From: Semisulcospira habei
Lineage: Eukaryota; Mollusca; Gastropoda; Semisulcospiridae
NCBI GenBank assembly: GCA_036245525.1
Contig: BTPG01000004.1
Location: 160,398,230-160,462,229 of the forward strand
Direction: 5' to 3'
Length of the DNA: 64,000 nucleotides
Every line of letters begins with the position of its first letter. Positions within the stretch are counted from its first letter, which is position 1. A program made the position numbers and the translations under genes. This document shows, piece by piece, positions 17,595 through 55,507 of this stretch. The notes under the pieces were generated by a model. It ran no database searches. It was not told the origin of the DNA and was given only the letters and a program-made list of their open reading frames with translations.

Positions 17595-17606
17595 TTGGGT
17601 GGAGTG

Positions 17607-22051: not shown

Positions 22052-22222
22052 GGATAATAATAATAAGCACATTAAATAGGCGCTTTATCCCAATTGAAAA
22101 TCGGCTCAAAGCGCCGCCACGAACTGAACCCAACAAGCACGCTCACGTGAATCACGCGCATTCACCCACACACAGTACATAAACACAGAACATTCACGTG
22201 GTGCTAAGGGCAAGCTCAAGCG
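22052..22222 (-). repeat. SINE family B, tail half (split by the Polinton)
   Basis: Matches the distal half of the family B SINE at 43320-43520: AATAATAATAAG, AGGCGCTTTATCCCAATTG and CTCAAAGCGCCG. The other half, with its tRNA-like head, is at 38390-38641. The last six bases, CAAGCG (22217-22222), are the Polinton target duplication. Confidence 0.88.
22217..22222. other. Polinton target duplication, left
   Basis: CAAGCG directly before the left AG terminus. It is identical to 38390-38395 after the right terminus, and was part of the SINE at the target site. Confidence 0.93.
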
Positions 22223-22362
22223 AGAGATATAAGGATGGAGAATACAACAGATTTTTTGACGACGGCAATTTTTCATTGTTTTTGATCACAAATCGCTCAT
22301 CTAATGACACACCCCGTTTTTTTAGGTTTCTCCTTATTTTTTTCAGTAAAATAAAGGTTTCC
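22223..22362 (+). repeat. Polinton left terminal inverted repeat
   Basis: Pairs with 38250-38389. The best-conserved core includes GGAGAATACAACAGATTTTT, TTGTTTTTGATCACAAATCG and CACACCCCGTTTTT. Matching fades near TAGG and an A/T-rich segment. Such repeats are recognised by the integrase, and in protein-primed systems they also act as replication origins. Confidence 0.92.
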
Positions 22363-22402
22363 AAAATCAATGACATTTAAAATTAATATTTTTTATTATA
22401 AA

Positions 22403-22930
22403 ATGAATCAAGACGAATTACTTCTTCTAAATGATATCAACGCTGTAGAAAACAAAGATTTAGACTCTAAGAAACAGCGTCTTTTGTCTGTGATTGTCTC
22501 AGGCAAGTCAAAGGCTTATCTCGGAAAACAATACATGACAGAGGATATTGAATCTCTCACCGCTGACGAACTATTAAAACTTCATTCAAAATATGAAAAC
22601 CACATTGCCTCACTAATGACTCGTGATTTGAGTCGATCTCTTGTATGCCTATACACAAAAGCAGTGAGTCACTTTCTACCTGTGGATAGTGACAGTCTTT
22701 CACACGACCTTGAAAGCAATCCTATTGTTTCAAGTTCAATTGGCAAATTAGCATGTGTCATGTTTTACAAGTTTGGAAATTACCTTGCACCTGTCGTAAC
22801 ATTGCTTGTTACCGGGAGCCATATTGATTTCTCAAAAATAAATTTTACTGCAGAAGAAAATGGACGAGAACAAGATGACTACACAACAGAACCCCGACCC
22901 TGTTTTGACACAGGTTCAAACTGTGACTAA
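22403..22930 (+). CDS. Conserved Polinton protein of unknown function, 175 aa
   Basis: First gene after the left repeat. The start MNQDELLLLND was preferred over an in-frame Met 11 codons upstream because it follows the AAA-ATG context used by the other genes. The protein has an SKAYLGKQY motif and the segments SLVCLYTKAVSHFLPV, DLESNPIV and FYKFGNYLAPVVTLL. I recognise this type from other invertebrate Polintons but know no function for it. There is one moderately hydrophobic stretch near the C-terminus (~133-150). Its end overlaps the next gene by 71 bp in another frame, and that last stretch (TTEPRPCFDTGSNCD) may be shaped by the overlap. Confidence 0.75.
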   Translation: MNQDELLLLNDINAVENKDLDSKKQRLLSVIVSGKSKAYLGKQYMTEDIESLTADELLKLHSKYENHIASLMTRDLSRSLVCLYTKAVSHFLPVDSDSLSHDLESNPIVSSSIGKLACVMFYKFGNYLAPVVTLLVTGSHIDFSKINFTAEENGREQDDYTTEPRPCFDTGSNCD

Positions 22931-23300
22931 GGCTAAAAGTCCAGGGAGGGTTGAGGCTGGAAAGAGAGTAGCTGCATTGAACAAACAAAGAAAGTTAGAA
23001 CTACTGCAAAAGGTACATGTAACTGACCCACAGTCAATATCACCATTGGTGTCACTACCGTCAGGACCATCACACCCTCATCAAAGTGAGAGACAAACAA
23101 CTAAGTCTGACCCTGAAACAACAAAATATATAGTTGCCGGATTTGTTGTCGGATTTGGTTACGTAGGTTACCAATTATACAAAAAATACAAACCACAGAC
23201 TCGTATAGTGACCAAAAAATCAGACACTCCAAAAACAAAACCAGAAGTCGCCACATTACCAGTAACACCCAAAGCCGTTGACCCATTTTATATGCAGTAA
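22860..23300 (+). CDS. Small membrane protein of the Polinton, 146 aa
   Basis: Starts MDENKMTTQQ, overlapping the end of the preceding gene. It has a basic N-terminal half (KAKSPGRVEAGKRVAALNKQ), then a single predicted membrane segment IVAGFVVGFGYVGYQLY (~89-105), and a Lys/Thr/Pro-rich tail. The basic part could contact DNA and the hydrophobic part a membrane. This is inference only. It is followed by TAAATAAAA, a stop codon merged with a polyadenylation-like signal. Confidence 0.7.
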   Translation: MDENKMTTQQNPDPVLTQVQTVTKAKSPGRVEAGKRVAALNKQRKLELLQKVHVTDPQSISPLVSLPSGPSHPHQSERQTTKSDPETTKYIVAGFVVGFGYVGYQLYKKYKPQTRIVTKKSDTPKTKPEVATLPVTPKAVDPFYMQ

Positions 23301-23336
23301 ATAAAAATATTATTTTAATTTTTCTTGCCTTAGAAA

Positions 23337-23567
23337 ATGAATGACTCAAAAAATTTAATGAACCTTGTGTATCACTCTGCAGTAATCAGTGGATTAGCAG
23401 TAGCTTATTCTATGCTGGGGAAAAGTCTACTCAAAATGAAATCAGCAGACTTGAGTAGATTAGACTTTGAAGACAGTGCTAAGCTAATTGTAGTTGTAAC
23501 AGCGTCGATTGCAACAAAAGATTTTCTTGTCAAGCAGGGAATTATTCCAGAAAATGTTTCTATGTAA
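23337..23567 (+). CDS. Small hydrophobic protein of the Polinton, 76 aa
   Basis: MNDSKNLMNLVYHSAVISGL followed by AVAYSMLGKSLLK and a second hydrophobic stretch LIVVVTASIATKDFLV. It is probably a two-segment membrane protein of unknown role. It is compactly placed, 36 bp after the previous stop and 11 bp before the next start. No homologue with a known function is recognised. Confidence 0.65.
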   Translation: MNDSKNLMNLVYHSAVISGLAVAYSMLGKSLLKMKSADLSRLDFEDSAKLIVVVTASIATKDFLVKQGIIPENVSM

Positions 23568-23578
23568 ATAAAATAAAT

Positions 23579-24013
23579 ATGGCGACGATAGCTATTATGA
23601 TTGGGGGAGCGATGGTTAACGCATTGGCTTTCAGTGGCTCAAACTATCTCTTTTCAAAAATGGGTAGAGAAGAATCAGCAGAAGAAATGAAACGTCACAA
23701 TGAGGCAACAGAAAAACTTGCTCAAGCCCAGCAGGAATATGAAAAGAATAGAATTGAGAAACTTGATTTCATCAATGAAAAACTCAGGCTTGAAGGCCAC
23801 GCACAACATACGTTTTCAAATACAGACGAAGCAATCAGGGAATATTTTCTTGTCACAGGTGAAGACATGTCTATCCCTAAACCGAAACTAAGTGACTATT
23901 ACAAACCAAGCACACAACAAAGAAATGGGGAGATAATCTTTGTTCTAGTGGGAATGACATTTGTTTATTTTACTGGAGTTTTTATTGCTAGAAAAAATGG
24001 CAGCCGAAAATAA
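23579..24013 (+). CDS. Conserved Polinton membrane/coiled-coil protein, 144 aa
   Basis: N-terminal hydrophobic segment (IAIMIGGAMVNALAFSGSNY), a charged helix rich in Glu/Lys/Gln at ~28-65 (HNEATEKLAQAQQEYEKNRI, likely coiled coil), HTFSNTDEAIREYF, and a C-terminal membrane segment EIIFVLVGMTFVYFTGVFIA (~117-136). This two-anchor layout recurs in animal Polintons next to the integrase. I know no assigned function; a role in the particle or membrane is inference. It overlaps the integrase start by 17 bp. Confidence 0.75.
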   Translation: MATIAIMIGGAMVNALAFSGSNYLFSKMGREESAEEMKRHNEATEKLAQAQQEYEKNRIEKLDFINEKLRLEGHAQHTFSNTDEAIREYFLVTGEDMSIPKPKLSDYYKPSTQQRNGEIIFVLVGMTFVYFTGVFIARKNGSRK

Positions 24014-24971
24014 ACTATCAAAAATATATTACTCACCATCAGGCTATTGGAAAGGAGCAACCGCTATTGAAAAATTACATGCCGCTGTGGGCGGAGATAT
24101 AACACTCAATCAGGTCAAGCAATGGTTACAGAGACAGGCAATTTGGCAGATATATTTACCTGCTCCAAGAAAAATAACGAGACCTCATTTTGAGAACACT
24201 ACCCCAAATGACACACATCAAATGGACCTCCTGTTTTTACCACATGACACAATAAGAAAGAAACGATACAAGTATGCATTAACTGTTGTAGACATTGCTT
24301 CAAGGTATAAAGACGCTGAACCCATATCTGACAAAACAGCTAGTACAGTTGCTACAGCATTATCAAAGATATATAGTCGAGGCCCTTTAAGATACCCCAG
24401 ACTAGTGCAAGTTGATGATGGATCAGAATTCAAAGGTGCTGTTAATCAGTTATTTGCTAAGCATGGCGTACTGGTCAGACGAGGCATTCCAGGTGTGCAC
24501 AGATCGCAGGCAATTGTTGAAAACTTTAACAAACAGTTATCAGAAAGACTTTTCAGTTACCAGTATTCTAAGGAACTCATGCATGACACACGTAACACTG
24601 AATGGGTACAAAGGTTACCACATGTGATAAAAGCAATGAACAATGAAGGACACCCAAAACCTGCTGATGCTATTAAATTGAAAACAATTACAGAGCCAAA
24701 AACAATGTCAACCCAGGCACCGCTTGCACCAGACACAAGTTTATTTACTAAACAGGTAAGATATTTATATCAACCCGGAGAGGCCGAGAACGACGACAGA
24801 CGCAGGGCAACAGACCCCATCTGGTCAACGTCTGTACACAATATAAAAAAAATAATTCCCGGTCCTGACGCAACAATATATTACCTGTACGACCCTGCGC
24901 CCCAGAGGGCATTTGTCAGAGAAGAATTACAGATTATTCCCCCAGACACCGTTACTCATTTCAGTAACTAA
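23997..24971 (+). CDS. Polinton integrase (retroviral type, rve)
   Basis: DDE-type integrase that inserts the linear element and makes the 6-bp duplication. The start is MAAENKLSKI (an upstream in-frame Met lies 12 codons earlier). The N-terminal region contains the family's YSPSGYWKGATAIEKL. The catalytic core has D77 in HQMDLLFLP, D140 in QVDDGSEF and E175 in IVENFNKQLSERL, so all three acidic residues are present with ~34-residue spacing. The C-terminal ~260-310 (RYLYQPGEAEND, YYLYDPAP, FVREELQII) resembles the small DNA- or chromatin-binding tail found in these integrases. There are no stops or shifts. Its 3' end overlaps the convergent PolB gene by 45 bp. Confidence 0.95.
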   Translation: MAAENKLSKIYYSPSGYWKGATAIEKLHAAVGGDITLNQVKQWLQRQAIWQIYLPAPRKITRPHFENTTPNDTHQMDLLFLPHDTIRKKRYKYALTVVDIASRYKDAEPISDKTASTVATALSKIYSRGPLRYPRLVQVDDGSEFKGAVNQLFAKHGVLVRRGIPGVHRSQAIVENFNKQLSERLFSYQYSKELMHDTRNTEWVQRLPHVIKAMNNEGHPKPADAIKLKTITEPKTMSTQAPLAPDTSLFTKQVRYLYQPGEAENDDRRRATDPIWSTSVHNIKKIIPGPDATIYYLYDPAPQRAFVREELQIIPPDTVTHFSN

Positions 24972-27900
24972 GTCGTCAATTAATTCATCAACCAGTTCAT
25001 CACAAATGTCTTCAGATAACTTGAGCCTGTAATGACCTGGTGCATAAGCTTTTTCCTTACTGTGAAAAACACGTTTCGTGTCTCCAACTGCAAGTGACTT
25101 CTTATGTGTTTGAATTATTTCAAGATTATGTTTGTTTGATCTCAGTGACTTGTTTGGATAGTCAGGCATCAATGCACCATCTAACACTTCTTTGTAATGT
25201 TCATGACGTATGTCTTTATTTTTTATTGCTGTTTTCTTGATACCTTTGGCTTTCGACTGACTACCCTTCTGGTGCAGTATAGAATACATTTTTGATCTCA
25301 GTCCAACGTACTCAACTATAGGCACACCATTCAGTTCATCTTTAAACTTACCAGGCACTTTCTTGTTTTGTGTGCTAAACAGCGGGTGATCTTTAGGGTA
25401 GTCAGACGTGTCATACATGTGTAACTCTGTTTTCATGTCTTCGTAAAAGTCTTCAGTAGGCACGTCTATGATCATAGAGTCAGTGTCAGTGTATAGCAGA
25501 CGACACTCAGGATATTTTGGTTTGAAGTAATCATAATAAAATTCAAGCATCAACAGTTTTGACAACTCAAGAATTGCCATACCAATGAATACTGGCTTGT
25601 CCAGTTTAACAATCTTTTTTTTGAGTGACACTGCATACAATGATGAATGAAATTCTTTATACCCTGTGTACTGTGGCTTGCCTGTAAGTTTAATTGCGCC
25701 CGATTCAGTTGTGACTAGTCTCACATCTTTTCTGTGATGAGGATTTTCCATTGTCTTGCCAAAACAGGCATTGTTCATAAGCTTAAAGAAGTCTTTGTCA
25801 AATGCAGTGTTGCCGTCTCTGGCACGAAGGGTTGTGTTCTTCATTATGTAATCTTTCATGAAAGCACTCTGATCAAATTGAATTCCTCTGTGAACTTTCT
25901 TTAGTACTAACCCGTGTCTGATGTAAAACTGCAACAAGCGGTAGTGACAAACGTAATTGAATTTGTCATTTAGATTCGGTACAAGTTTAGTGTCTTCTTT
26001 TTTCCCCGTCATACTCATTTTCTCAACAGCCAACGGATAATCATTATGGTAATCGTGTAGATGGTGTGGGTACTCCAGGTCTACTTCAAAGATCCAACAC
26101 TTCGCGTCGTTTCGGTCATGATTCATAATATTGTTTGTTATGTCTGTTATATCATACTGTGACAAATCATACAGACAAAAGTTTTTCAAGGGCAATAATT
26201 CACACATCGCGAACCCATACAAATTGTTAGCGTCAAGGTACGTAATGAATGACCTTGACCCAGGGTTTGAGGGGTCAAGGTCCGGACTGTCCAAATATTT
26301 GTTGTTGGCTCTGGCGTAATTGTTCGCTGCAATACTAATCCCTCCCCTCAATCCACGTTCCACCATTTCACCCATCGTACGATCAGACAACAGGTCTATA
26401 AATATCTTACTGGATTTCAAAAATGCATCCCATGTCATGCCAGGACTAGTGATGTAACAAGCAGGGTCAAGTCTGTAGTGTAACAAACCCTTCTCACGGT
26501 AACTTTCAAATACATCTGCTAGCAAGCAAACGTCAGCTTTCAAATACTGGTCGTGATAGTCACCAATTGTCTGACACCCCAACTTCCCCCACGCATCAAG
26601 AGCATGCTGATATTCAGAGTCAGAAATACCTTTTCCAGTTAGTGTAGAATAAAATTTCTCTTTTGGTGGCAGTCTTGTTTCTTCAAACACAACCCAGTGA
26701 TCAATGTACTCATACGGATACACACCTTTCTTAATCAAGTCTGGCTCAAAATATTTACTCGTTATTGGATACTCAGTCAGTCCTTCTGCCAGACTAGCCA
26801 ATCCTAAAGACAAATGTTGCATGGAGTCATAAAATGCTAATTTATCTAACCTAAAAGTTAAGTATTTCTCAGTTGTCTGGGCAATACAACTTATGTTTTT
26901 GTACGACTCATCCACAGCCTGCATGATGATGTGTGAATCATATCCTTTGAGATTGTGAAAAAAGATTGGTAACTTGTATGTCTTAGGATCTATTTTTAAT
27001 TTCAAGTTACAATCACCATGTGCAGCACCTCTGTAATGCCCAGTTATGTGATCGTGGTCACGAACTTTATCACCCCCTAAAGGTTGTTCACAAATCCAAC
27101 ACGTCTCAGCTGTATCAAATTTCAGTTTGTCTTCTTCTGTCATCACCAAAGGCATCTGACATGTTGTGAGATACTGTACTACCTGACTATACAGATGTCT
27201 CATTTCTGTTAAAAACAAACATGCTGCATTTTCTCCCCTGTAGATAACAGGCTCTGAATGCTGTCCGTCTGACCTAACAAGAATGTATCCAAAAGAACAC
27301 ACCACTTGGTCACTCAGTTTTATAGTCTTTGGTAATGACTCTGGAACAGGACCCTCATATGGTACAACCAATGATTCAAAATCTGCATACACTACAAATG
27401 GCAACTTTTGCTGATTCCCATAGTTCTTAAAATAAACCTTGCTGCCAGGATCTGGATACTTAAGTACAGTTTGTATGTCATCAGCTGATCTGCAGTGTAA
27501 AACATGTTTGTGCGCTACGTTTATGGAGGAGAATCTTTGTAAACATCTCTTACACACTTCCTGTTTACCATTATGTTTTGATACATGATTATGAATTAGT
27601 CGTGACATACTCCTGATAATTGTGTAGTGGAAGTTATCACCAGAGCTTATTAATAACATGTCAACATGTTTATCTTCTGACTGCCCATAGGTTGGGGCAA
27701 TTGGGGACACTCTAATTGGCTGTAACTTATCAACCGACTCATTATCCCACACATACACATTTACAGATATACCAGGATTTAGTTTTTCAAACAAATCTAT
27801 GTCCTCTATTTTGACAGGGAACTCAATGCCACTAAAAACGAGTTCGTTTACAAATTTGGTGTAGTTAGATGCACGTTCAGGCTTTGATTTTACAAAGTGT

Positions 27901-28397: not shown

Positions 28398-28433
28398 TTT
28401 TATTTGACCGACAAAATAATAAATGAAAAAATA

Positions 28434-28778
28434 TTACCGCTGGCTCACCTTGTGTAATACCACTTTATTAACTGTAACACTGTCAATATAAACATTTAGT
28501 TTGCGTAGTTGTTTAAATATGCTATAACAAACTTCCCCTAACCAGCCATAGTTGGTATCATCAACTTTAAAAGTAGGTGTCTTTAAATCAACTGTCATGT
28601 GCTCCACATTTGGATGCTCATCGACATAATCCAAAGTCACACTGTATGTAACATATATTTCTGATGGTGCTGAAAGGCTTATGTAAGTCTGTTTGGGTGA
28701 TATTAAGTCAGTAAAGTGCATAACATCTTTGAAAAGGTGTGTGAGATCAAGCACTTGTATGATTTGTCCGTCTGTCAT
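28434..28778 (-). CDS. Hypothetical Polinton protein, 114 aa
   Basis: Lies between PolB and the ATPase on the same strand. It starts MTDGQIIQVL after CCAATAAAA, the same leader arrangement as PolB. It has no membrane segment or catalytic motif. Alternating hydrophobic residues (EIYVTYSVTLDYVDEH, VYIDSVTVNKVVL) suggest a beta-rich small domain. I do not recognise it. It lacks the His and Cys pattern expected of the missing protease. Confidence 0.6.
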   Translation of the reverse strand: MTDGQIIQVLDLTHLFKDVMHFTDLISPKQTYISLSAPSEIYVTYSVTLDYVDEHPNVEHMTVDLKTPTFKVDDTNYGWLGEVCYSIFKQLRKLNVYIDSVTVNKVVLHKVSQR

Positions 28779-28814
28779 TTTTATTGGACAAACAAAAGAA
28801 TAAATTAATTTACA

Positions 28815-29826
28815 TCAATTTACTAACCCATACCCTGTGGGCTGATCTGTCTTTAAAATGAGCTTTAGATGCTTAGTTGATTTCAGTTTATTTTTTACAT
28901 CATCACGTTCATGCTTATTTGGGATGACATCATTCTCTCTGAGACAGTCTTCAAAGCTGTCACGATCCTTACAGTAAAACAAACAGATAAACTTTAACTG
29001 TTCTCGAAAATCTTTCAGTACAGCATTATATTTTTGAGTGAGAATCCATACACTGACATTTGCGTGTCTGCCACTGAAGGCAAGTTCTGCTAGAGTGTTT
29101 CTCTTCTTGACAATGTCTACCCCACCCGGGTCTGCCCTGGGGGACTTGGGTGGGGTTAGGTATTTTTTAGTTCCCAGGGTCACCCTGGTCAGCCCCACAG
29201 GGTGGGTTTTTCTCTCTATTCTGGGGAATGTGTTTCTGTCTACCCTTTGTCCATTCACCTGTATTTGCCTTTTTAAAACTCTCCCTACTGTCTGCACTGC
29301 CTGTAGCTCTTGATATTGGATGTGTGTTGCTAAATGGTCTTAGCTTTATTTAGGCCCATGTGTTAGGTTTATTTAACGTATTTGACCGGCTGGCGACATA
29401 CATTCAATGTTCTGTTTCTTTTTTATTTTTTCACAAGCAGTGCAGGCACGTCCTGAGAAAGCCTTGTTGCTGTCGGGACGTTAAGCAATGTACAATCAAT
29501 CAATCATTGACAATGTCTTTCTCTGCAGAACAGTCATCAACAATAAACAATGTTGACTGTCCTTCAAATTGTTTGTAAAAATACAGCAGGTAGTCATTCA
29601 GTTTTTTCTCAGGGTCAACTAAGTATATGTTGCTGTCAGTCCAAATAAATAAACGGTTGTGATAAGCTTTGTTGTGTTTGATTGTAGGACAAAATATTAC
29701 AATGTTTTCAAAGTGGTGTATGTATCTTGTTTGCAAGAGGTTAAGTACAAATTCAGTTTTACCACACCCTGTGGCACCACAAAACAATCCACAGTGTGGA
29801 TCGAGTGTCATTAAGCTCCGGTTCAT
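28815..29826 (-). pseudogene. Polinton packaging ATPase (A32/FtsK-HerA type), interrupted by a SINE
   Basis: DNA-packaging ATPase split into two exon-like halves by an insertion. The upstream half (29826-29507) has Walker A GATGCGKT at residues 17-24 and Walker B TLFIVDD at ~92-98. The downstream half (29118-28815) carries the Q-loop-like WILTQKYN and the rest of the fold, ending PTGYGLVN. Between them lies a family A SINE at 29119-29506 with a 12-bp duplication at each side. Read without the SINE and one duplicate, the frame is continuous, so the disruption is recent and single. A Met 12 codons upstream is also possible. Such ATPases pump element DNA into capsids, so this copy has probably lost that step. 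Confidence 0.9.
29119..29506 (+). repeat. SINE family A inserted in the Polinton ATPase
   Basis: Full-length copy from CCCCACCCGGGTCTGCCCTG to the tail CAATCAATCAATCA, flanked by TTGACAATGTCT at 29107-29118 and 29507-29518. It has the same beginning, central GACCGGCTGGCGACATAC and 3' core CGGGACGTTAAGCAATGTAC as copies at 52.1, 55.1 and 55.6 kb. The (AATC) tail and 12-14-bp duplications indicate mobilisation by LINE machinery. Confidence 0.95.
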
Positions 29827-29845
29827 TTTAATACACAATATAATT

Positions 29846-31121
29846 TTAATATATGTGTCCACTCAGTCTGCTTTCTGCAATATTGAGTTGTGCGTCATAT
29901 ATCAGGTACAAATATATGTTTATGGCTGCAGCAGTTTCAACCTTCTTTTGTATCTGAATTGTTATTCCGTCACTACCGTTCTCGACAGTTCGTCCTGACC
30001 CATGAAGGTAGTCGTCATCTGTACTACGAAGATCTAGCCACAGTGCATACTTGTTTGTAAGGTATTGTCCGATCCTAACGTCATACAGATGTAGATCTTT
30101 GCACGCAATGTTTGCTGGTTTATCTCTAATCCTTCCACCCGCAAAATACTTTGTGGTTTCGTCATAGTGTTGATAAGGTAACATTCCTGAAGCGTACACT
30201 TGATTAGGGCGGCCTTCGATTGTGCAGGACAAATGTGTAATCTTAGGATTGTAGAATTTTTCTGAATCTCTTTTGTATGGACTCACTGGTTCAACAAACA
30301 ACATAAGAATACCTGGCAGGCGTGTTCAAGTTTATGTTCCACATTGGGTCACTTTTGTCTTTGGGTATTAAACTATGCCTAATCACACGGTCATAATAAA
30401 TTGGAAGTCTTGACTGATACTGATTTTGAATGAGTCTGGCTAGTTCAGTGTGTGTAACAATTTCATATTCCAAGGAAATGTTAGAGATCTTATATGTTGC
30501 ATCTGTGGCAGATGATTTAATAACTTTGGAGTAGTCATTGAAAGTTAGTTCAAAACTTAGACGGTCATTCAGTGCTCCTTGATAATAAGGCAAATGAGCT
30601 GTGAGGATTTCAAACTCAAGTGGAATGTAAAATCTGGTTCCATATGTTTCAGCTATAATAACTTCCTTTGGTACCCCAGTAGTTGTTTTGTCTCCGGCAT
30701 TGATTCGAAGTTTACCAACGTTATCAGACTGTATGCCTTGGTAAACACGGTCTTCTCGTTCTTCTCTTGTGAGCCAAAGATCTTTGTAACAGTAGAACAC
30801 ATCTGAGTCGTCAAGACTAAACACTTCCTGTCCTTCAAGTTTTACTTTAATAGTTCTAACAATTGCTCTGCCAAGATTGTCAACCAGTGTTCTGTTTACA
30901 TCTGCGTCTGATGATAGTTCGATATTAAATGCTAGGCGTGCAGTGCCAGGAACGATAACGTCACTGGGACCTAGGTTTGGAAACTTGACTGTAAGTGTTT
31001 GGTTCTGGTCTATGGTACTTGGATTGTTCGTGATGACGATTGATTGTCTTATGCCCTTAACACCCAGGGGCTCACGTAGTTTTCTGTATGGGTCTAACTT
31101 TGATCCGTAAGACTGTGTCAT
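29846..31121 (-). pseudogene. Polinton major capsid protein (double jelly-roll), frameshifted
   Basis: The gene encodes the main capsid shell protein typical of Polintons. The upstream frame (31121-30291) begins MTQSYGSKLDPYRKLREPLG and contains ILTAHLPYYQGALNDRLSFE and LEYEIVTHTELARLI. The downstream frame (30304-29846) holds YKRDSEKFYNPKI, GRPNQVYA, YLTNKYALWLDLRS and ends LSGHIY. The two overlap by a few codons in frames offset by one base near 30300-30310, so one indel separates them. Together they cover the expected length of ~420 aa. The start follows ATAATAAAA. An assembly error cannot be excluded from sequence alone. The 5'-proximal gene of the ATPase-MCP block is transcribed with the ATPase. 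Confidence 0.9.
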
Positions 31122-31161
31122 TTTTATTATGCACAATAAAAAATAATAAATTAATAAAACA

Positions 31162-32415
31162 ATGGCCGCAGGAGGATTTAATCATGAAGATTTTGAAATG
31201 GATGACACGTATGATTTTGGTAATACAACAGATATGGCAGATATGGCAGATATGACTGGTACAAGAAATATTTACAGTTTACGTCACAAACTTTTAGAAA
31301 CCAAAGTGAACTCATTTTATGATCATGTTCGTGGCCGCCCAGACAACATAGACCCTAACCAGTTTGAACTTGATGGCAAGGGTCATTTATATTTAAATAC
31401 TGTTGACAAAGGAAAAGTACTATTGACTAACAAAAAAGACCCTAGTAGGTTTAGGGCTTTAAGTACAATAAAAAATGAAGGTGGTGTTGGTGCCTTGCGT
31501 CAACTTGGTATTGGTGGGTCTCCTGTCACGCCAAGACTGGCTAGTGTGCTTCACGACACGCAAACAAAGTTGCCAACAGGGCAAGAGATTGAAATGGCAC
31601 CAGTAACAAACCTACCAGAAATAGCAAACACAGTGATACAAGAAACCTCGTTTACTAAAGGGCAAATAAATGATGCTATGAAAACAATAGATGATCCACC
31701 TTTGTCAATGAGAGAGATTATGGGTTTGGATAAATCATTGCAGACAATAAAAGGTGAGATGGTTAATAATGTTGCCAAACTGGGAGAGCTTGATAAACAC
31801 ATAGAACGTGAAAAAGAGAAACTGGCTACAGCAGACAATGGAAATCTTGACACAGAAATGAAAGAAAGAATACAACACAGATTAAATGATTTGCAGATAG
31901 AAAGATCAGGACGGTTAGAAACAATTAGTATTGGGAGACAAAAACTGAAATCACAGGTCAACAGAATTAGAGAAACTATTCAGAAAATACTTCACGAAGA
32001 CACTACTCTGGCTGAGAGACTTAAAACACTTTTCAGAGAACAGGGTATCACAATTGCTAGTTTAATTACAGCTCTGGGATTTATTATCAGTACTGTTGTC
32101 TTAGCTGTCTCCGGCAGTGGTGGTGGTGGTCCAGCCCCAGCACCGGCACCGCCACCCCCGGGCCCACCGGCTCCCACAGATCCAAAAGATTTACAGTCAT
32201 GGGTAAAGAAACAACTGTCTCACATTTCAGACTTGCTTAAGAAATTGGCTCTGAAAGCAGTGGACGCTTTGCCTGGCATAATTGGCACTGTTGTCAGTTG
32301 GATGATTACTACTACAGCAAAGGCAGTAGGGTTTATGGCAGAGCATGTGTGGGTCTTTTTGGTTACAGTAGGAGGGTTGATGGTGGGTTATTTAATGAAA
32401 CAGATAAAGAAGTAA
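31162..32415 (+). CDS. Conserved Polinton membrane protein with coiled coil, 417 aa
   Basis: Order of parts: an acidic N-terminus with a DMADMADM repeat, a polar region, a highly charged helical region ~190-290 (ELDKHIEREKEKLA, probable coiled coil), then TLAERLKTLFREQGITIASL leading into a hydrophobic segment 294-317. A Gly/Pro-rich linker follows (~318-340), then a mildly hydrophobic PGIIGTVVSWMITTTAKAVG segment and a final membrane segment ~394-411. This architecture is found in Polintons of cnidarians and other invertebrates, but I know no tested function. A membrane-associated virion role, comparable to spike or membrane-penetration proteins, is inference. It is divergent from the MCP (41-bp gap) and overlaps the next convergent gene by 24 bp. 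Confidence 0.8.
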   Translation: MAAGGFNHEDFEMDDTYDFGNTTDMADMADMTGTRNIYSLRHKLLETKVNSFYDHVRGRPDNIDPNQFELDGKGHLYLNTVDKGKVLLTNKKDPSRFRALSTIKNEGGVGALRQLGIGGSPVTPRLASVLHDTQTKLPTGQEIEMAPVTNLPEIANTVIQETSFTKGQINDAMKTIDDPPLSMREIMGLDKSLQTIKGEMVNNVAKLGELDKHIEREKEKLATADNGNLDTEMKERIQHRLNDLQIERSGRLETISIGRQKLKSQVNRIRETIQKILHEDTTLAERLKTLFREQGITIASLITALGFIISTVVLAVSGSGGGGPAPAPAPPPPGPPAPTDPKDLQSWVKKQLSHISDLLKKLALKAVDALPGIIGTVVSWMITTTAKAVGFMAEHVWVFLVTVGGLMVGYLMKQIKK

Positions 32416-33645
32416 AACCCCTAATCCTGTTAGACCTATTACCAATGCAGTTCTTTCCGACTCATGTGTGTCAGGGGTTGGTGTTAGATCCGGGGTTGAT
32501 TGTATGAGTGCCGGTGTTGGGCCCGGGGCCGGGGCCGGGGGTGTTACCGTCTGTAATGTTTTTAATAACTGTACATGTGTGGTTGTGGCCCCCAAGTTTA
32601 CAGATTGATTGAGACCGAGTTTTTGACCAACACCTGCAACAACTATTTCATTATTATAATTTGTTATTGTTCCCATTTGGAGTTGAAGGTCAGATGGTAA
32701 CATGTATAACCCGATGCCAACTACAAAGTCAACTTTTGATCTGGCATATCTGAGTACGTCTTGATAGCGTTGTATGCTAGATGGGAGATCTACTGTTGAG
32801 TTGATTGAATCTTCAAGATTAGCAAGAAACTGTTTTTGTGCTTCAAACTTTCCACTTCCATTCAAAATGTTTGATTTTGTTAGTGATTGTGCTCCTAGTA
32901 TACACCAGACATATGTTCTGATAGACTCATTGACGCGCTCAACTCCTGCTTGAGTAAACCCGTCAGATTTATCTAAGACAAATGTGGTCCAGGCGTTAGA
33001 CTGTTTCTGCTCTATTGATCCTAACCAGACTTCAGATTTAGATGAGAATGAAGTGTAACCAGGGTAATAATCTTGAGGGTATTGTCTGTGACTCAAAGCG
33101 TAATACAATGTACCCATGCCTTTGTGATCATCAAGTTTTTGTGTGAAGTCATACTTAGTGCTTATGTTAAATTCATTACAAATGCGTTCAAACGCTTTCA
33201 TATCCATGGGGTTGTTATACCTGTTGAAACTGGATTCAGTTGGCAGTGGGGTATGAAGTTCTGACAGTATACGTCTAAGCTGGTAATAAACATGGAAATG
33301 ATACACAGACCTAATCAGTTTGTTTGAGTGATTCAAGCGGTCTGTAAATGAAACACCACAGCCTGTAGTTGAGCATAGTATTGCAAAGTTGAGTTGGTTT
33401 TGAAACATCTGTAGTGGACTTGAAGACCACTTTCTTGCAGTAGAGTCATCTGTTATTGGAGGGTTTAGGTAATGATCAAACGGATTTGGTACTTTCACTT
33501 GGAATAGGTCTTGTTCTGATACAGCTATGTCGAGTTGATTTAGTTGAATTATTTTCTGTTCATAAGTAGGTGCAACATTATATTTGGCATTCACATTAAA
33601 TTGAAATGCGTTTGTAGTGGTAATGGTTGGTGATTTAAATTCCAT
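32392..33645 (-). CDS. Conserved Polinton protein with C-terminal anchor, 417 aa
   Basis: Starts MEFKSPTITTTNAFQFNVNA and includes PNPFDHYLNPPI, SPLQMFQNQLNFAI, STTGCGVS, RSVYHFHVYYQLRRIL and FERICNEFNIS. The conserved core continues with AWTTFVLDKSDGFTQAGVER and YARSKVDFVVGIGLYM. After a Pro/Thr-rich linker (~365-395) comes one hydrophobic C-terminal segment (TALVIGLTGLGVLLLYLF). I recognise it as a recurring Polinton protein, without an assigned function. The tail anchor suggests membrane or virion association. The start at 33645 is preceded by TATAAAAAAGG. Confidence 0.8.
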   Translation of the reverse strand: MEFKSPTITTTNAFQFNVNAKYNVAPTYEQKIIQLNQLDIAVSEQDLFQVKVPNPFDHYLNPPITDDSTARKWSSSPLQMFQNQLNFAILCSTTGCGVSFTDRLNHSNKLIRSVYHFHVYYQLRRILSELHTPLPTESSFNRYNNPMDMKAFERICNEFNISTKYDFTQKLDDHKGMGTLYYALSHRQYPQDYYPGYTSFSSKSEVWLGSIEQKQSNAWTTFVLDKSDGFTQAGVERVNESIRTYVWCILGAQSLTKSNILNGSGKFEAQKQFLANLEDSINSTVDLPSSIQRYQDVLRYARSKVDFVVGIGLYMLPSDLQLQMGTITNYNNEIVVAGVGQKLGLNQSVNLGATTTHVQLLKTLQTVTPPAPAPGPTPALIQSTPDLTPTPDTHESERTALVIGLTGLGVLLLYLFH

Positions 33646-33669
33646 CCTTTTTTATATGAGATAATAAAA

Positions 33670-34380
33670 ATGTTTATTACCTTAACAAATCTTGACACAA
33701 GCAAACCAGTGTGGTTAACTAATGGGATTGATAATCGTGATGGTAGCAAGGCTGCAGCTATCCATGAATTGTTCTACACAGTAAAATGGTTTAATATTGA
33801 AGATAATATATATAATAAAGTAATTTTTGATGGTAAGACTGAAGCTTTACCACCCGGGTATTATGACTTTTGTACTATAGCTGAATGGTTTCAAAGTAAT
33901 TTTAAAATTAAAGCAACTTTAAATCCAGCTAACCTACTTGTTACATTAGAATCTCCGACACAAGATTGGCTAAAGATCTCAGATAGATTTGCATATTTAC
34001 TTGGATTTTATATTGACGAAGATTGGTATAGATCAGATGATTTAGATGAAGCTATGTCTGGTATTATAACAATGAAGACCAAAAAACTTAAAATAACTGG
34101 AAAACGCCCTGTCAATTTGTCAGTACACAGAGTGCTAAATGTTTATTTGAAAGAACTAAACACATCTGAGAATGTTCACAATGGAAAGCCTTCAACTTTG
34201 TTGAGATGCTTACCTACTGGAACTGCTCCGTATTGTGAAAGTGTAGTTGTTAGATTTCCTAATTTGCAGTTTAAGAAATTAGGTTCTAGTTTCTTTGAGT
34301 CACTGAGTATATCTGTAACTAATCAGGATGACAAACCAGTTCTTATGCATGATTTTAGTGTTGTGTTGGAAATTAAATAA
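33670..34380 (+). CDS. Polinton minor capsid (penton-like) protein
   Basis: A 236-aa protein with the profile of the single-jelly-roll minor capsid protein of Polintons, which forms the vertices. Features are ALPPGYYDFCTIAEWFQSNF, LKISDRFAYLLGF, a RPVNLSVHRVLNVYLKELNT segment, the KPSTLLRCLPTG block, and the closing strand pattern FFESLSISVTNQDDKP. There are no breaks. It starts at ATG immediately after GATAATAAAA and shares the 24-bp intergene space with the divergent 417-aa gene, so both promoters must lie within or near that gap. Confidence 0.85.
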   Translation: MFITLTNLDTSKPVWLTNGIDNRDGSKAAAIHELFYTVKWFNIEDNIYNKVIFDGKTEALPPGYYDFCTIAEWFQSNFKIKATLNPANLLVTLESPTQDWLKISDRFAYLLGFYIDEDWYRSDDLDEAMSGIITMKTKKLKITGKRPVNLSVHRVLNVYLKELNTSENVHNGKPSTLLRCLPTGTAPYCESVVVRFPNLQFKKLGSSFFESLSISVTNQDDKPVLMHDFSVVLEIK

Positions 34381-34400
34381 TTTTATTTTTGTTTATAAAA

Positions 34401-35276
34401 ATGAGTGGTGGTCCAAAGTCGAGAATCATACCATTTGCATGTCCAGTAACAGAATTGAAAGATTTGGCAGACGTACAGGATTTTGAGAAGGAAGGGGAAA
34501 TTGGAGAAATATATGGTTTTGAACTTGATTCAAATGGCATGTACAAGAGGAAAGTAATTGTTGACATGAAAGACGGTGAAAAACAGATTCCTAAACTTGG
34601 TCAGCTGCGTGATGTTACTGTACCTACTCCACCTGTAAATAATGCGCCTTACAACTTAATACATGTGGGTAGTAAGTGGGTGGTTTCACCTGTACCTGTT
34701 CCACCACCCACAATTGACTGGGACATAAAGTTGGAATTTATTAGTCCTTATGTATACACTGATGATGAAGGTGCCTTAGTGTTTAGGAAGGTTGTTAATT
34801 CTGGGCCGCTTATTGTAAGTCTTGTTCCAAGCTTTGCCCCAGACAACAATAGCAGAGAAAAACTGAAAGTTGAAAATTATGAGAGACGGCGGTATCTTCT
34901 TACAACTAGAAAGGGTAGATCAGATACTTCTGTTGTGTTTATGCCAGCAAGCTTAGTCGTGGCTAGAGAAGCGGCAATAGTATTTGAAATTATCATGAAA
35001 TCAGTAACTACTGCTAAAGAGGCTCAAATTGCACAGGGAATTAAACTTACATGGGACGAAACAGTAACAGAATCATCAAAGGTCTTTATTGCTATTACAA
35101 AAAATGTTGATGTTATTAATGTTTCGAGCAGTGTTCCAGCTGTCAAGGTGGTGGTCGACAAAACAACTTTTGTTCGTCTAACTTACATAAACCTTGAACA
35201 CATTGATCTTGTTGCATTTTATTATGCCAGCAAATTGTATACTTTTGAAGAGTTGCAAAATGTAATTGCTGATTAA
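34401..35276 (+). CDS. Hypothetical Polinton protein, 291 aa
   Basis: The start MSGGPKSRIIPFACPV follows TTTATAAAA; a Met four codons upstream is less likely because it lies inside that leader. The protein is soluble-looking and beta-rich, with no membrane segment. Visible segments are IGEIYGFELDSNGMYKR, a Pro-rich linker SPVPVPPPTIDWDIKLEF, and RRRYLLTTRKGRSDTSVV. The C-terminus has LTYINLEHIDLVAFYYASKL. I do not recognise it. Its position between two structural genes suggests a virion component. It ends TAAATAAAA. Confidence 0.7.
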   Translation: MSGGPKSRIIPFACPVTELKDLADVQDFEKEGEIGEIYGFELDSNGMYKRKVIVDMKDGEKQIPKLGQLRDVTVPTPPVNNAPYNLIHVGSKWVVSPVPVPPPTIDWDIKLEFISPYVYTDDEGALVFRKVVNSGPLIVSLVPSFAPDNNSREKLKVENYERRRYLLTTRKGRSDTSVVFMPASLVVAREAAIVFEIIMKSVTTAKEAQIAQGIKLTWDETVTESSKVFIAITKNVDVINVSSSVPAVKVVVDKTTFVRLTYINLEHIDLVAFYYASKLYTFEELQNVIAD

Positions 35277-35306
35277 ATAAAAAAAAAATATTTGTGAATA
35301 AAAAAA

Positions 35307-35993
35307 ATGGTAAACTTCTATCCACAACTACCAACGCTTGAGCCGACTGAAACAAATGTGATGACTAAAACAACACTTGCGCCTGATCCACATATGCCAA
35401 TTGCTTCAGATAAAACATTACAGGCAGATGCATTCAGATTAAATAATATTACAGAAGCTTTGAAATATTTGGAGAGTGAGGAGGCTAAGTACTCACGGTG
35501 CAAAAGGAGGTATAAGTCAGTATTTAATTCTGTTCAAAACACTTCTATGGCTATTGGTGCAGTTTCAGCTTCATGTTCTGTAGGGGGTATCGTTCTGTTC
35601 GCCACAGGAATTGGGAGTTTGGCTGGAATAGCAGTTGAGGCTGTTAGCGTTGCTACATGCCTGGCTTGCTTTGGTTTGGAAGCCTTGAACAAGAGGTTTC
35701 ACACGAAATTACAGAAACATGAAGCATTGAGTACGCTTGCTGGTGCAAAGCTGGGCAGTATGAAACTTATTATCAGTAAGGCATTGAACGATAATTTTAT
35801 TGATGACGAAGAATTTAAGCGTGTCCAGGATGATTTGAATAATTACAAAAAACAAAAATCTGAAATACAGAATAAGATGCGTAGTCAATCTCCTGTGAAT
35901 GTTGAAGAACTGAAGGCTAGTTTTTTAGAGATGGGGAAACAGATCGGTGTTCAGGAAACCACAGAAAAACTACACAATCTTTTAAACAAATAA
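35307..35993 (+). CDS. Conserved Polinton membrane protein, 228 aa
   Basis: N-terminal polar part, then a helix with ALKYLESEEAKYSRCKRRYK. A long hydrophobic hairpin follows at ~80-122 (AVSASCSVGGIVLFATGIGS, then AVSVATCLACFGL), then a charged C-terminal helical region (KALNDNFIDDEEFKRVQDDL, YKKQKSEIQNKMR). Similar proteins occur in cnidarian and mollusc Polintons, with no assigned function. It is the last gene before the right-hand non-coding block and ends AAATAAAAATC. Confidence 0.72.
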   Translation: MVNFYPQLPTLEPTETNVMTKTTLAPDPHMPIASDKTLQADAFRLNNITEALKYLESEEAKYSRCKRRYKSVFNSVQNTSMAIGAVSASCSVGGIVLFATGIGSLAGIAVEAVSVATCLACFGLEALNKRFHTKLQKHEALSTLAGAKLGSMKLIISKALNDNFIDDEEFKRVQDDLNNYKKQKSEIQNKMRSQSPVNVEELKASFLEMGKQIGVQETTEKLHNLLNK

Positions 35994-36149
35994 AAATCAG
36001 ATTTGGTAATCGTTTATTAATGACATACACTTCACAGAAAAATGACATGCCACCTAACTATTTAACCCCATCAGCACCACCAGCACCACCTGACTATTAC
36101 TAAAAAAAGTTTTTTCATTGTCCTTGTATCTTGACAAATCTGTCCGAGT

Positions 36150-36290
36150 AAGTTGTGACTTAAGTTGTGACTTGAGTCAAGAACTTACATTTTGTTAGTT
36201 TAAGTTCTTATAAGTTCTTGACTAAGTCACTTAATAACTAATTATAGGTTCTTAAAAGGTTACCTGTAAAGTTATCTGTCAGTTATAAGT
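36150..36290. repeat. Cluster of AAGTTNNTGACTT motifs with a palindrome
   Basis: Two tandem 12-mers AAGTTGTGACTT (36150-36173) lead into TGAGTCAAGAACTTAC, forming an imperfect palindrome with arms AAGTT..TGACT and AGTCA..AACTT. Variants follow (TAAGTTCTTATAAGTTCTTG, ACTAAGTCACTT, AGTTATAAGTGACTT). Repeats of this spacing could be protein-binding sites, which is inference. Confidence 0.55.
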
Positions 36291-36483
36291 GACTTTGGAA
36301 AATTTGTTAACAAGTATCTGCAGGTAACTTAAATAATTTGTTATCAAGTGCATATAGCAATGTTTTTTTTTTTGTGTGTGTGTGTGTGTGGTTATTATTT
36401 AAATAACTGTTTTGGGGGGGGGGGGGGGTATTGGCACAGAGGCAATGAAAAAATAATGTTTTTGGAATCTTATATTTTATATC

Positions 36484-36952
36484 TCTAACACACATATATA
36501 CACGCACACAAACAAACACACACGCACGCAAACACGGACGCACATACACATATAAACACATGCACACACGCACGCAAACACACATACATACATACACGCA
36601 CACATGCACTCACACAGGCACACACACACATACACGTACGCACTCACACGCATACATACATACGCACACACAAACACATACGCACACACTCACACGCATA
36701 CATACATACGCACACACATACAGACACGCACGCATATACACACTCACACATACAGACACGCATGCATATACACACTCACACAAACACACACACACACACG
36801 CACGCACACACATACAGACACGCACGCATATATACACTCACACATACATGCACTCACCGGCACAAACGCACACGCATACACACTCACACGCACATACACA
36901 CATACATACACGCACACTTACACACGCACACTCACTCACAGACAGACAGACA
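36484..36952. repeat. CA/CACG-type microsatellite
   Basis: About 470 bp of ACACAC with interspersed ACGCAC, ATACATAC and CAGACACG. It produces long spurious Thr/His and Val/Cys frames in several phases, none of which is a gene. Followed by CAGACAGACAGAC. Confidence 0.92.
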
Positions 36953-37109
36953 CAAAATCTTTATTCAGCATGCATGAATATTGAAGACTCCAGTCCGTCC
37001 ACAGAACACCACCAGGCTTTAGTCGTATGTCACGCGATACACAACAACTGTGTACACAAATTGGCACTGTGCACTTAGACTCGTTACTAAGATCCTATTC
37101 GACGTCGTG

Positions 37110-37198
37110 TTCTATCGTACTACGTCATTTATTTACACTGTTACTAAGACCCTATGACGTAGTACGATAGAAACGGCGCTCATGGCATGAGCGCCGTT
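37110..37198. repeat. Two adjacent inverted repeats
   Basis: TTCTATCGTACTACGTCAT (37110-37128) is inverted at 37154-37172, leaving a 25-nt loop. Directly after lies a second palindrome, AACGGCGCTCATG/CATGAGCGCCGTT, around one central base (37172-37198). Just outside, GTTACTAAGAYCCTAT occurs as a direct repeat (~37083 and ~37139). Confidence 0.75.
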
Positions 37199-38249
37199 GC
37201 CATGGTCAGTCCTTTGTTTACCACACAGCCAACATAAGGCCCTTAAACAGAGTCATTTAACTCTGTGTTCTGTCTTCAAATTTCTTAGTTGTCCATGGCA
37301 AGAAAGTGATAGCAATGACTCTGTTTGAGAAAGCTCAATATTCTGTTAACGCCGTGCGGTTCAACGCTGTTGATTACACAGCTTTCTACAGCCTTCACAT
37401 AACGGCGAAACAAAATCGATATGCCTATTTTCCGCGACACAGCATAGTTACCTGTAATAGCGTGTGGTTGGCCACTGGTTTAAGATAGCTCAATGGTGGT
37501 GTAAACAATTTACATTAGGCTGCACTAACTTCGTAATAACACGCTGACACTGAGTGACTCTACAAAATTGAAGGCTTGTCAGAACCGGGTTTCTATGCAG
37601 TTGTTTTTAAAAGGTCTAACGCTACATTGCCTAGCTAAATTAAACAACTGGCAAAAATAACCGGAGGCTGTCATATTGAATAGAGTCCGCCATGCCTTTT
37701 CGTACGGTACCACCAAGAAACTGTAAAACATCGGTCTTTTTACTCACAGTTGTGTTTAAAGTAGAACGCAATACCGCTAAAGCCGGTCGTACTCACTCGG
37801 CTAGCTACGATTTGTCAGTACTGAAGTTTTTCTTTCAGTCTCGGCGCACTGCAGCAACCGAAATATAATAAATTTAACAGACAAACTATCAATCTTACCG
37901 TAGTATATATTCAGCAAGATTTAGCAATAACGCACTGAATAACAAGTCTGGGATAGTCCGTCAGTAAAAACACACCCGTCTAACACACACACACAGCGTA
38001 ATTGATAAAGGCCGGTTGAATGTTTGACAGAAGTCACATGTCTGTTGTCACGGGTGTTGACAACAGCCGGCGGCGCGTGTGCGCAGTAGCGTGTTAGCGG
38101 TCTGCGGCTGTTCAATAGCAGCGGGGCGGCGGGCGAACCTGGGGCGCTGTTTTAATACAAACGTTTCTGGAAATATGGGCGGCGTTAAGGTGAGGTAGTT
38201 TGTGGTCAAAACAATGGAAATTTGGGGGTGTATATAAATTGTCCAAATT

Positions 38250-38389
38250 CTTATTATTTATTTTTCAAATAAAAATTAAGAAAATCCTAGAAAAACGGGG
38301 TGTGTTATTTGATTAGCGATTTGTGATCAAAAACAATGGAAAATTGACGTCGTCAAAAAATCTGTTGTATTCTCCATCTTCCTATCTCT
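38250..38389 (-). repeat. Polinton right terminal inverted repeat
   Basis: Reverse complement of the left repeat, with a few mismatches and small gaps (for example GGAAGATGG against AAGGATGG near the tip). It ends TATCTCT at 38389. The close match of the two arms fits a fairly young insertion. Confidence 0.92.
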
Positions 38390-38641
38390 CAAGCGAGCTA
38401 CTGTAGTTTTTGGAAATTCAAAATCGTTTGTATTTGAAATTTGATTAAGTGGGCTGAAACTGATACCAAAGTCGTGGGGGAGGAAGAGCCGGAGTACCCG
38501 GAGAAAGAACCCCCGACGGTCCGCCCGAATTAACGGTGACACTTACTAGAGGAGAAAAATCCGACGCCGGAACCCGTAATCGAACCTTTCACCTTTAGCA
38601 TTGGTGGCAGGCGCCTTAACCACTGCGCCACGGACCGCCCA
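38390..38641 (-). repeat. SINE family B, tRNA-like head half (split by the Polinton)
   Basis: Minus-strand tRNA-derived SINE head. Read on the minus strand it has box A TGGCGCAGTGG (38620-38630) and box B GGTTCGATTAC (38576-38586), the internal RNA polymerase III promoter. It matches 43530-43738 closely. It begins with the duplicated CAAGCG, and its other half ends at 22222, so the SINE was the Polinton's target. Confidence 0.9.
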
Positions 38642-52063: not shown

Positions 52064-52441
52064 CCCCCACCCGGGTCTGCCCTGGGGGACTTGGGTGGGG
52101 TTAGGTATTTTTTAGTTCCCAGGGTCACCCTGGTCAGTCCCACAGGGTGGGTTTTTCTCTCTATTCTGGGGCATGCGTTTCTGTCTACCCTTTGTCCATT
52201 CACCTGTATTTGCCTTTTTAAAACTCTCCCTACTGTCTGCAGTGCCTGTAGCTCTTGATATTGGATGTGTGTTGCTAAATGGTCTTAGCTTTATTTATGC
52301 CCCATGTTGTAGGTTTATTTAATGTATTTGACCGGCTGGCGACATACATTCAATTTTCTGTTTAGTTTTTTTTCACAAGCAGTGCAGGCACGTCCTGAGA
52401 AAGCCTTGTTGCTGTCGGGACGTTAAGCAATGTACAATCAA
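52064..52441 (+). repeat. SINE family A, full-length
   Basis: CCCCCACCCGGGTCTGCCCT to GCAATGTACAATCAA, flanked by TGTACATGACACA at 52051-52063 and 52442-52454 (perfect 13 bp). It lacks the long AATC tail of other copies. Confidence 0.93.
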
Positions 52442-55114: not shown

Positions 55115-55507
55115 CCCCCACCCGGGTCTGCCCTGGGGGACTTGGGTGGGGTTAGGTATTTTTTAGTTCCCAGGGTCACCCTGGTCAGCCCCACAGGGTG
55201 GGTTTTTCTCTCTATTCTGGGGCATGTGTTTCTGTCTACCCTTTGTCCATTCACCTGTATTTGCCTTTTTAAAACTCTCCCTACTGTGTGCACTGCCTGT
55301 AGCTGTTGATATTGGATGTGTGTTGCTAAATGGTCTTAGCTTTATTTAGGCCCCATGTGTTAGGTTTATTTAATGTATTTGACCGGCTGGCGACATACAT
55401 TCAATGAAATTCTGTTTATTTGTTTTTTTTCACAAGCAGTGCAGGCACGTCCTGAGAAAGCCTTGTTGCTGTCGGGACGTTAAGCAATGTACAATCAATC
55501 AATCAAT
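55115..55507 (+). repeat. SINE family A, full-length
   Basis: Flanked by CAATGTCACTAAT at 55102-55114 and 55508-55520 (perfect 13 bp). Tail (AATC)n. The open frame across it also appears antisense and is carried by all family copies, so it is not a gene. Confidence 0.95.

What the first reader, a model, noticed from the sequence alone, without database searches (positions are those of the whole stretch)
22217..38395. Complete Polinton/Maverick with exact boundaries
AG...CT ends, ~140-bp inverted repeats, CAAGCG target duplication and the full replication/integration/capsid gene set define a 16,167-bp virus-like transposon. Such precise boundaries are seldom annotated in invertebrate assemblies. 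Integrase, PolB and minor capsid frames are open, so the copy is young.
Basis: partly seen in the sequence, partly recalled or inferred. Interest (0 to 1): 0.92.

Follow-up and report, generated by a model that had tools for sequence, protein, structure and literature searches.

The report
Young but broken Polinton virus-transposon
A 16,167-base virus-like transposon of the Polinton/Maverick kind sits between exact 6-base duplications; its open frames suggest it likely inserted recently, its packaging ATPase and main capsid genes are broken, and most of its genes are preceded by a shared A/T-rich signal that could be a viral-type promoter.

Summary
The element is 22223-38389 (16,167 bp), flanked by CAAGCG on both sides, with AG...CT ends and imperfect terminal repeats (116 of 133 nt identical). 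[quoted passage not shown] No maturation protease was recognised.

'Complete' needs correcting: the ATPase is split by a 388-nt SINE-like repeat, and the major capsid frame is shifted by a short deletion. 'Young' survives a better test: 11 open frames (10,944 nt) hold no stop, limiting neutral decay since insertion to about 0.65% (2% from PolB alone). The 14% divergence between the repeats therefore likely predates insertion.

One unexpected feature: ATAAA lies within 14 nt before 10 of 14 gene starts, against 18 of 579 other ATGs, and two divergent pairs have start codons only 24 and 40 nt apart. This resembles large-DNA-virus late promoters and may mean helper-virus transcription, as in virophages; that is untested, and most relatives fetched do not show it.

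Verdict: a new member of a known kind, with a testable promoter puzzle. The host genome could not be searched.

The parts
22217..22222 (.). left target site duplication CAAGCG
   Evidence: sequence
22223..22355 (+). left terminal inverted repeat (133 nt)
   Evidence: 116 of 133 nt identical to the right one
22403..22930 (+). ORF A, 175 aa, unknown (first in-frame ATG is at 22370)
   Evidence: no Pfam match
22860..23300 (+). ORF B, 146 aa, unknown
23337..23567 (+). ORF C, 76 aa, unknown
23579..24013 (+). ORF D, 144 aa, unknown
23997..24971 (+). retroviral-type integrase, 324 aa; D77, D140, E175
   Evidence: rve PF00665 2.6e-11; retroviral integrases in PDB, best 1ex4 1.2e-6; residues
24927..28397 (-). 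Polinton-type DNA polymerase B, 1156 aa, with N-terminal vOTU-type Cys157/His257 and an endonuclease VII-like zinc motif
28434..28778 (-). ORF of 114 aa, unknown
28815..29106 (-). packaging ATPase gene, 3' part (the open frame runs on into the repeat)
   Evidence: Pox_A32 PF04665 1.4e-5
29107..29118 (.). 12-bp duplication TTGACAATGTCT, left copy
29119..29506 (+). SINE-like repeat interrupting the ATPase, with (AATC)n end
   Evidence: three long copies, 94.1-96.5% identical, at 55116-55514, 52065-52442, 55606-55974; sequence
29507..29518 (.). 12-bp duplication TTGACAATGTCT, right copy
29519..29826 (-). packaging ATPase gene, 5' part with Walker A-type motif
   Evidence: Pox_A32 3.6e-7
29846..30325 (-). 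major capsid protein, C-terminal part in a shifted frame
   Evidence: relatives
30291..31121 (-). major capsid protein, N-terminal part; frame breaks near 30,310
   Evidence: 2,602 homologues, best 86%; relative P0002 predicted double jelly-roll
31162..32415 (+). ORF of 417 aa, unknown
   Evidence: no Pfam family above its cut-off
32392..33645 (-). ORF of 417 aa, unknown
   Evidence: no Pfam match
33670..34380 (+). predicted minor capsid (penton) protein, 236 aa
34401..35276 (+). ORF of 291 aa, unknown
35307..35993 (+). ORF of 228 aa; a relative lies next to an integrase in Polinton fragment L005
   Evidence: 28% over 163 aa, 2.4e-7
31122..31161 (.). 40-nt divergent gene-start region (capsid / 417-aa ORF)
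33646..33669 (.). 24-nt divergent gene-start region (417-aa ORF / penton)
35994..38256 (.). non-coding right arm with CA-rich array 36488-36954 and CpG-rich part 36955-38246
38257..38389 (-). right terminal inverted repeat
38390..38395 (.). right target site duplication CAAGCG

Best explanation
This is a Polinton/Maverick provirus whose integrase likely inserted it recently and which would have replicated by protein-primed DNA synthesis and packaged itself in a predicted double jelly-roll capsid, but its ATPase and major capsid genes are now broken. Shown: boundaries, duplication, repeats, gene content, catalytic motifs, the SINE-like insert in the ATPase and the frame break in the capsid gene. 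Predicted from models: the double jelly-roll fold (on an intact relative) and the penton fold. Inferred: integrase joins the AG/CT ends 6 bp apart; the N-terminal part of PolB primes DNA synthesis and the vOTU-type domain cuts it free; the A32-like ATPase pumps DNA into a capsid of jelly-roll proteins. This copy might still be moved if another copy supplied ATPase and capsid. The A/T-rich signal before most start codons likely acts as a short initiator-type promoter giving near-leaderless mRNAs.
For: Boundaries and 6-bp duplication. Vertebrate Mavericks have 6-bp duplications and the similar end-motifs (AG)3//(CT)3 (PMC8097293, passages). Integrase: rve 2.6e-11. PolB: 6,864 relatives of 7,992 scored; 0 of 79 columns invariant in 109 relatives are violated; vOTU Cys in 103 and His in 108 of 109. 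Capsid: 2,602 relatives of 3,181 candidates; relative P0002 modelled at pLDDT 87.6 matches PBCV-1 capsid proteins at 8.6e-17 and the mavirus capsid at 9.6e-13. Penton: 7 of 7 PDB matches at E<=0.001 are virophage chains, six of them the mavirus penton, the best at 6.5e-8. Youth: no stop in 10,944 nt of open frames, where 4.62 are expected per 1% of neutral change. Breaks.
Confidence: 0.93

Rival explanations
1. An old Polinton whose open frames persist by selection in the host (domestication), so that the 14% repeat divergence is its true age.
For: K2P 0.14 between repeats; a SINE-like insert and a capsid frame break suggest some time has passed.
Against: At 7% per arm, 32 stops would be expected in the 11 counted frames and none is seen; domestication would have to protect all of them, integrase included. 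PolB has 6 of 220 near-clade invariant columns changed against a mean of 4.0 (sd 2.9) in 18 relatives, so no clear sign of decay.
Confidence: 0.05
2. The element was copied to this place with the SINE-like repeat already inside, mobilised in trans by an intact sibling, instead of being hit after insertion.
For: Nothing in the sequence dates the repeat relative to the insertion; the 12-bp duplication is perfect and the copy is close to others in the window.
Against: A break in the ATPase would be expected to hinder packaging, so trans-mobilisation needs a helper copy; none could be looked for.
Confidence: 0.2
3. The capsid frame break or the junctions are assembly errors.
For: No reads could be examined.
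Against: The frame break is a deletion of several codons' worth at a conserved motif, not a homopolymer slip (against relatives); both junctions carry the same 6-mer next to matching repeat ends, which an assembly error would not be expected to produce.
Confidence: 0.04
4. An adintovirus, in the narrow sense, and not a generic Polinton.
For: PolB with N-terminal vOTU-type residues plus integrase; an adintovirus protein at rank 6 of the viral structure library for the capsid relative.
Against: The integrase shows only rve in Pfam up to E 10, no chromodomain; the folded capsid relative has 418 aa and is closest by fold in the PDB to Vp54-type proteins.
Confidence: 0.1
5. The A/T-rich signal before starts is not a promoter but a translation context, plain A/T-richness between genes, or the poly(A) signal of the gene before.
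For: A at -3 in 14 of 14 starts; both T (0.48 against 0.31) and A (0.40 against 0.30) are raised at -32 to -15, so the stretch is A/T-rich in general; most background ATGs lie inside genes; AATAAA lies in the stop-plus-60-nt stretch of 5 of 14 genes listed; 7 of the 11 loci with a testable start show no enrichment.
Against: Among A/T-rich contexts ATAAA still occurs at 7 of 82 other ATGs only (p 1.3e-6); five starts (A, capsid, both 417-aa ORFs, penton) have no same-strand gene just upstream yet carry ATAAA.
Confidence: 0.4

Closest known systems
Polintons/Mavericks (class Polintoviricetes)
   Same: Size, 6-bp duplication, AG/CT ends, inverted repeats, integrase, vOTU-type PolB, packaging ATPase, jelly-roll capsid proteins
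   Different: No recognised Ulp1/adenain-type protease; unequal terminal repeats in a copy that otherwise looks young; ATPase and capsid genes broken in this copy
PolB clade of unnamed contigs (P0121-P0133 and relatives)
   Same: PolB 55-59% identical over the region searched; clade of 15 including the window with support 0.997; four contig lengths recur in the PolB and capsid lists
   Different: Known here only from contigs without organism names; here the element sits among LINEs and SINE-like repeats
Adintoviruses
   Same: PolB with N-terminal OTU-type region, integrase
   Different: No chromodomain found in the integrase; hexon match untested by BLASTp
Mavirus-type virophages
   Same: PolB, integrase, jelly-roll capsid and penton; a motif repeated before most genes
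   Different: Motif differs from the TCTA motif of mavirus/CroV (PMC8547959, passages); no helper virus known here

Membership tests
Polinton/Maverick | 6-bp target site duplication | tested here: met
   CAAGCG twice
Polinton/Maverick | terminal inverted repeats with AG...CT ends | tested here: met
   116 of 133 nt identical; ends
Polinton/Maverick | protein-primed PolB | tested here: met
   by sequence: relatives, motifs; priming itself not testable here
Polinton/Maverick | retroviral-type (rve) integrase | tested here: met
   PF00665 2.6e-11
Polinton/Maverick | A32/FtsK-type packaging ATPase | tested here: met
   PF04665 on both pieces; gene interrupted
[quoted passage not shown]
   homology, predicted fold of an intact relative; this copy frame-broken
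[quoted passage not shown]
Polinton/Maverick | Ulp1/adenain-type protease (identifiable in 74% of 72 Polintons, PMC4028283) | tested here: inconclusive
   no motif match in six frames and best phmmer E 0.72; the pattern was modelled on the L005 protein, which itself scores only 0.064 in Pfam, so a divergent one could be missed
Adintovirus | PolB with N-terminal OTU-like domain | tested here: met
   Cys157/His257 conserved; fold not modelled
Adintovirus | integrase with C-terminal chromodomain | tested here: inconclusive
   only rve up to E 10
Adintovirus | hexon recognisable by BLASTp against adintovirus hexons | not tested
   no reference hexons were compared by sequence
Virophage-like (helper-transcribed) | gene-start motif shared with a helper's late promoter | tested here: inconclusive
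   motif enriched in the element and in some relatives; no helper identified

The most novel reading that the evidence does not exclude
This Polinton lineage is an animal counterpart of a virophage: its genes start from ultra-short, often bidirectional, near-leaderless promoters of the cytoplasmic large-DNA-virus late type (A/T-rich stretch, short spacer, ATAAAA abutting ATG), so it is expressed only when a co-infecting pox-, asfar- or iridovirus-like helper supplies the RNA polymerase.
Probability: 0.1. Interest if true: 0.85.

Novelty: new member of a known kind. Interest (0 to 1): 0.45.

Why it matters
Whether Polintons of animals behave as viruses is a long-standing question. A young copy with exact ends allows three direct tests: whether terminal repeats can differ at birth (which bears on how protein-primed ends are maintained), whether a protease-free capsid set exists, and whether the repeated start-codon signal is a viral-type promoter needing a helper. 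If the last is true and the host is an animal (likely from the LINE and SINE-like context, not shown), animal genomes carry virophage-like elements.

Tried and rejected
Scans of viral contigs with the window PolB, the capsid alignment and three unknown ORFs and of genome contigs with the capsid alignment gave no relatives; the PolB alignment gave 2 loci in viral contigs and 10 in genome contigs. Capsid relative P0002 had no match in phage records. PDB sequence searches were empty for PolB (E<=0.01) and for the capsid N part (E<=1); the capsid profile gave only a dUTPase at 0.32, taken as chance. PDB searches of three unknown ORFs gave nothing or weak matches, THO complex 0.16 and a chain named PROTEIN 2 at 0.34, ribosomal P1 0.012, taken as noise. 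Rfam (gathering threshold) and tRNA scans of the window were empty. PHROGs, given 7 of the 16 frames, added endonuclease VII within PolB and matches at E 0.0077 or weaker. Outside the element the window gave no match to the element's proteins (16 matches, none outside). In one search, and which reused the file, the 3' ATPase piece was translated out of frame, so its lack of hits says nothing. The host was not identified: Elysia crispata PolBs are 45-47% identical and two of 120 listed capsid relatives come from Thiodiazotropha bins; I recall AAGGTCAAGGGTCA-type repeats from molluscs, which is a lead only. The adintovirus and domestication readings were considered and set low (see rivals).

Counts on the start motif: the 14 starts use 22403 for ORF A, chosen before the motif was noticed; with its first ATG (22370) the count would be 9 of 14 (read). 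Of 12 fetched loci, enrichment against all other ATGs has p<0.05 in 4 (L002 8/10, L003 4/7, L005 3/6, L006 2/2), against A/T-matched ATGs in 3 (L002, L003, L006); it is not enriched in L001 (2/11), L004 0/2, L007 0/5, L008 0/2, L010 0/4, L011 0/2, L012 0/2, and L009 had no start to test. L010 has the integrase nearest to this one among the loci, so the motif is not shown to be conserved in the nearest kin. In the window's flanks 0 of 4 and 0 of 10 long-frame starts carry it, a weak control since those frames are mostly LINE fragments. On rereading I saw that A as well as T is raised upstream, so the stretch is A/T-rich in general; I therefore raised the rival 'context, not promoter' from 0.35 to 0.4 and lowered the novel case from 0.12 to 0.1.
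Full report
Boundaries. The left flank ends in CAAGCG (22217-22222), followed by AGAGATA; the right end reads TATCTCT followed by CAAGCG (38390-38395). The terminal repeats match at 116 of 133 positions (8 transitions, 9 transversions, K2P 0.14). A 6-bp duplication directly outside matching repeat ends is what an integrase would leave; vertebrate Mavericks have 6-bp duplications and the similar end-motifs (AG)3//(CT)3 (PMC8097293, passages).

Protease. No frame matched a protease family in Pfam. A motif search over six frames found none in the element, one in L005 and none in L001, L002, L003, L006, L007 and L010; the best phmmer match of the L005 protease in the element has E 0.72. The pattern was modelled on the L005 protein, so L005 is no independent control, and that protein itself scores only 0.064 in Pfam; absence is not proven. 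Krupovic and colleagues found the protease in 74% and the ATPase in 83% of 72 Polintons, with full-length capsid genes in 46 and split ones in 13 (PMC4028283, section 3 part 1), so a Polinton without a recognised protease and with a split capsid gene is not exceptional.

Damage. The ATPase gene is interrupted at 29119-29506 by a repeat ending in (AATC)n, flanked by the 12-bp duplication TTGACAATGTCT; three long copies in the window are 94.1-96.5% identical. The capsid frame breaks near 30,310, where relatives have a conserved stretch that is shortened here. Neither gene was mended or joined.

Age. Of 14 gene units 12 are open. Across 11 of these (ORF C left out; 10,944 nt) 4.62 stops are expected per 1% of neutral substitution and none is present. 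That bounds post-insertion change at about 0.65% (95%); PolB alone (nonsense fraction 0.0437,468 nt) bounds it at about 2%. The frames were chosen as open, which favours a low figure. PolB violates 0 of 79 columns invariant in 109 relatives, 3 of 193 columns conserved at 97% (mean of relatives 2.7), and 6 of 220 in 18 close relatives, against a mean of 4.0 (sd 2.9) for those relatives themselves (109 of 120 and 18 of 20 listed proteins, those longer than 1,000 aa). The capsid pieces violate 0 of 32 (first 266 residues) and 0 of 13 columns invariant in 58 of the 120 listed relatives. If the repeats had been identical at insertion, 7% change per arm would predict 32 stops. So the repeat divergence likely predates insertion, meaning that replication in this lineage does not keep the two ends identical. 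This is inference from one copy.

Relatives. Of 120 listed PolB relatives, 5 carry organism names (four Elysia crispata, one snake). Four contig lengths (13209, 13194, 7467, 12593) recur in the PolB and capsid lists, suggesting that both genes travel together; this was not verified on sequence. L001 and L002 (IMG/VR contigs, 36% PolB) and L010 (integrase 52%, PolB 45% in its best segment) are the nearest with context; in L001 and L010 PolB and integrase also lie tail to tail.

Gene starts. Within 14 nt upstream of the start codon, ATAAA occurs at 10 of 14 gene starts and 18 of 579 other ATGs of the element (p 8.5e-12); among A/T-rich contexts it is 7 of 82 (p 1.3e-6). ORF A is counted from 22403; from its first ATG the count is 9 of 14. 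The 18 nt from -32 to -15 are A/T-rich (T 0.48 against 0.31, p 1.3e-4; A 0.40 against 0.30); most background ATGs lie inside genes, so part of this is a gene-gap effect. PolB, the 114-aa ORF and one gene of L002 share a nearly identical block, TTATT[A/C]TTTTGT, before ATAAAA-ATG. Divergent starts are 24 and 40 nt apart here; in L002 a pair at 8230/8256 and in L005 a pair at 882/912 are similarly close. Poxvirus late promoters are described as a core of about 20 bp with T residues, a gap of 5-7 bp and TAAAT overlapping the start of transcription, without a 5' UTR, and iridoviruses have AAAAT near start codons (PMC5294985, passages). Mavirus-type elements carry the CroV late motif TCTA before their genes (PMC8547959, passages). 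The likeness is of architecture, not identity of motif. The motif is enriched in 4 of the 11 fetched loci with a testable start and not in the other 7, L010 among them. I found no description of such a signal in Polintons in the listings of searches (12 of 45 papers shown; 12 of 158), nor in term searches of PMC4642659 and PMC8097293; that is a limited search.

Verdict. A genuine, likely recent, now damaged Polinton: a new member of a known kind. The terminal-repeat inequality and the gene-start signal are the points worth following.

Noticed in passing
L005 912-2120: In a Polinton fragment inside a bacterial genome bin, the integrase frame carries an N-terminal phospholipase A2-like domain (PF08398, 8.3e-11; I recall it as parvovirus-type), beside an adenain-like protease.
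   Followed up: partly
window 4785-6089 and 16291-17595: Two copies of a LINE reverse transcriptase, 1,305 nt, 99% identical in opposite orientation; the second lies in an open 1,038-aa frame, so the LINE is likely recent.
   Followed up: no
window 36955-38246: Non-coding right arm of the element is CpG-rich (observed/expected 0.96-1.25 against 0.47-0.61 in the coding parts and flanks) and self-complementary around 37110-37206; origin unknown.
   Followed up: partly
window 58702-58950: A 123-nt unit duplicated in tandem at 98% inside a reverse transcriptase-like frame.
   Followed up: no
window 4010-4162, 52065-52442, 55116-55514, 55606-55974, 61886-62014: Further copies or pieces of the SINE-like repeat that interrupts the ATPase.
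   Followed up: partly
L001 4787-6556: IMG/VR Polinton-like contig encodes a protein with an endosialidase chaperone domain (PF13884, 8.6e-6).
   Followed up: no
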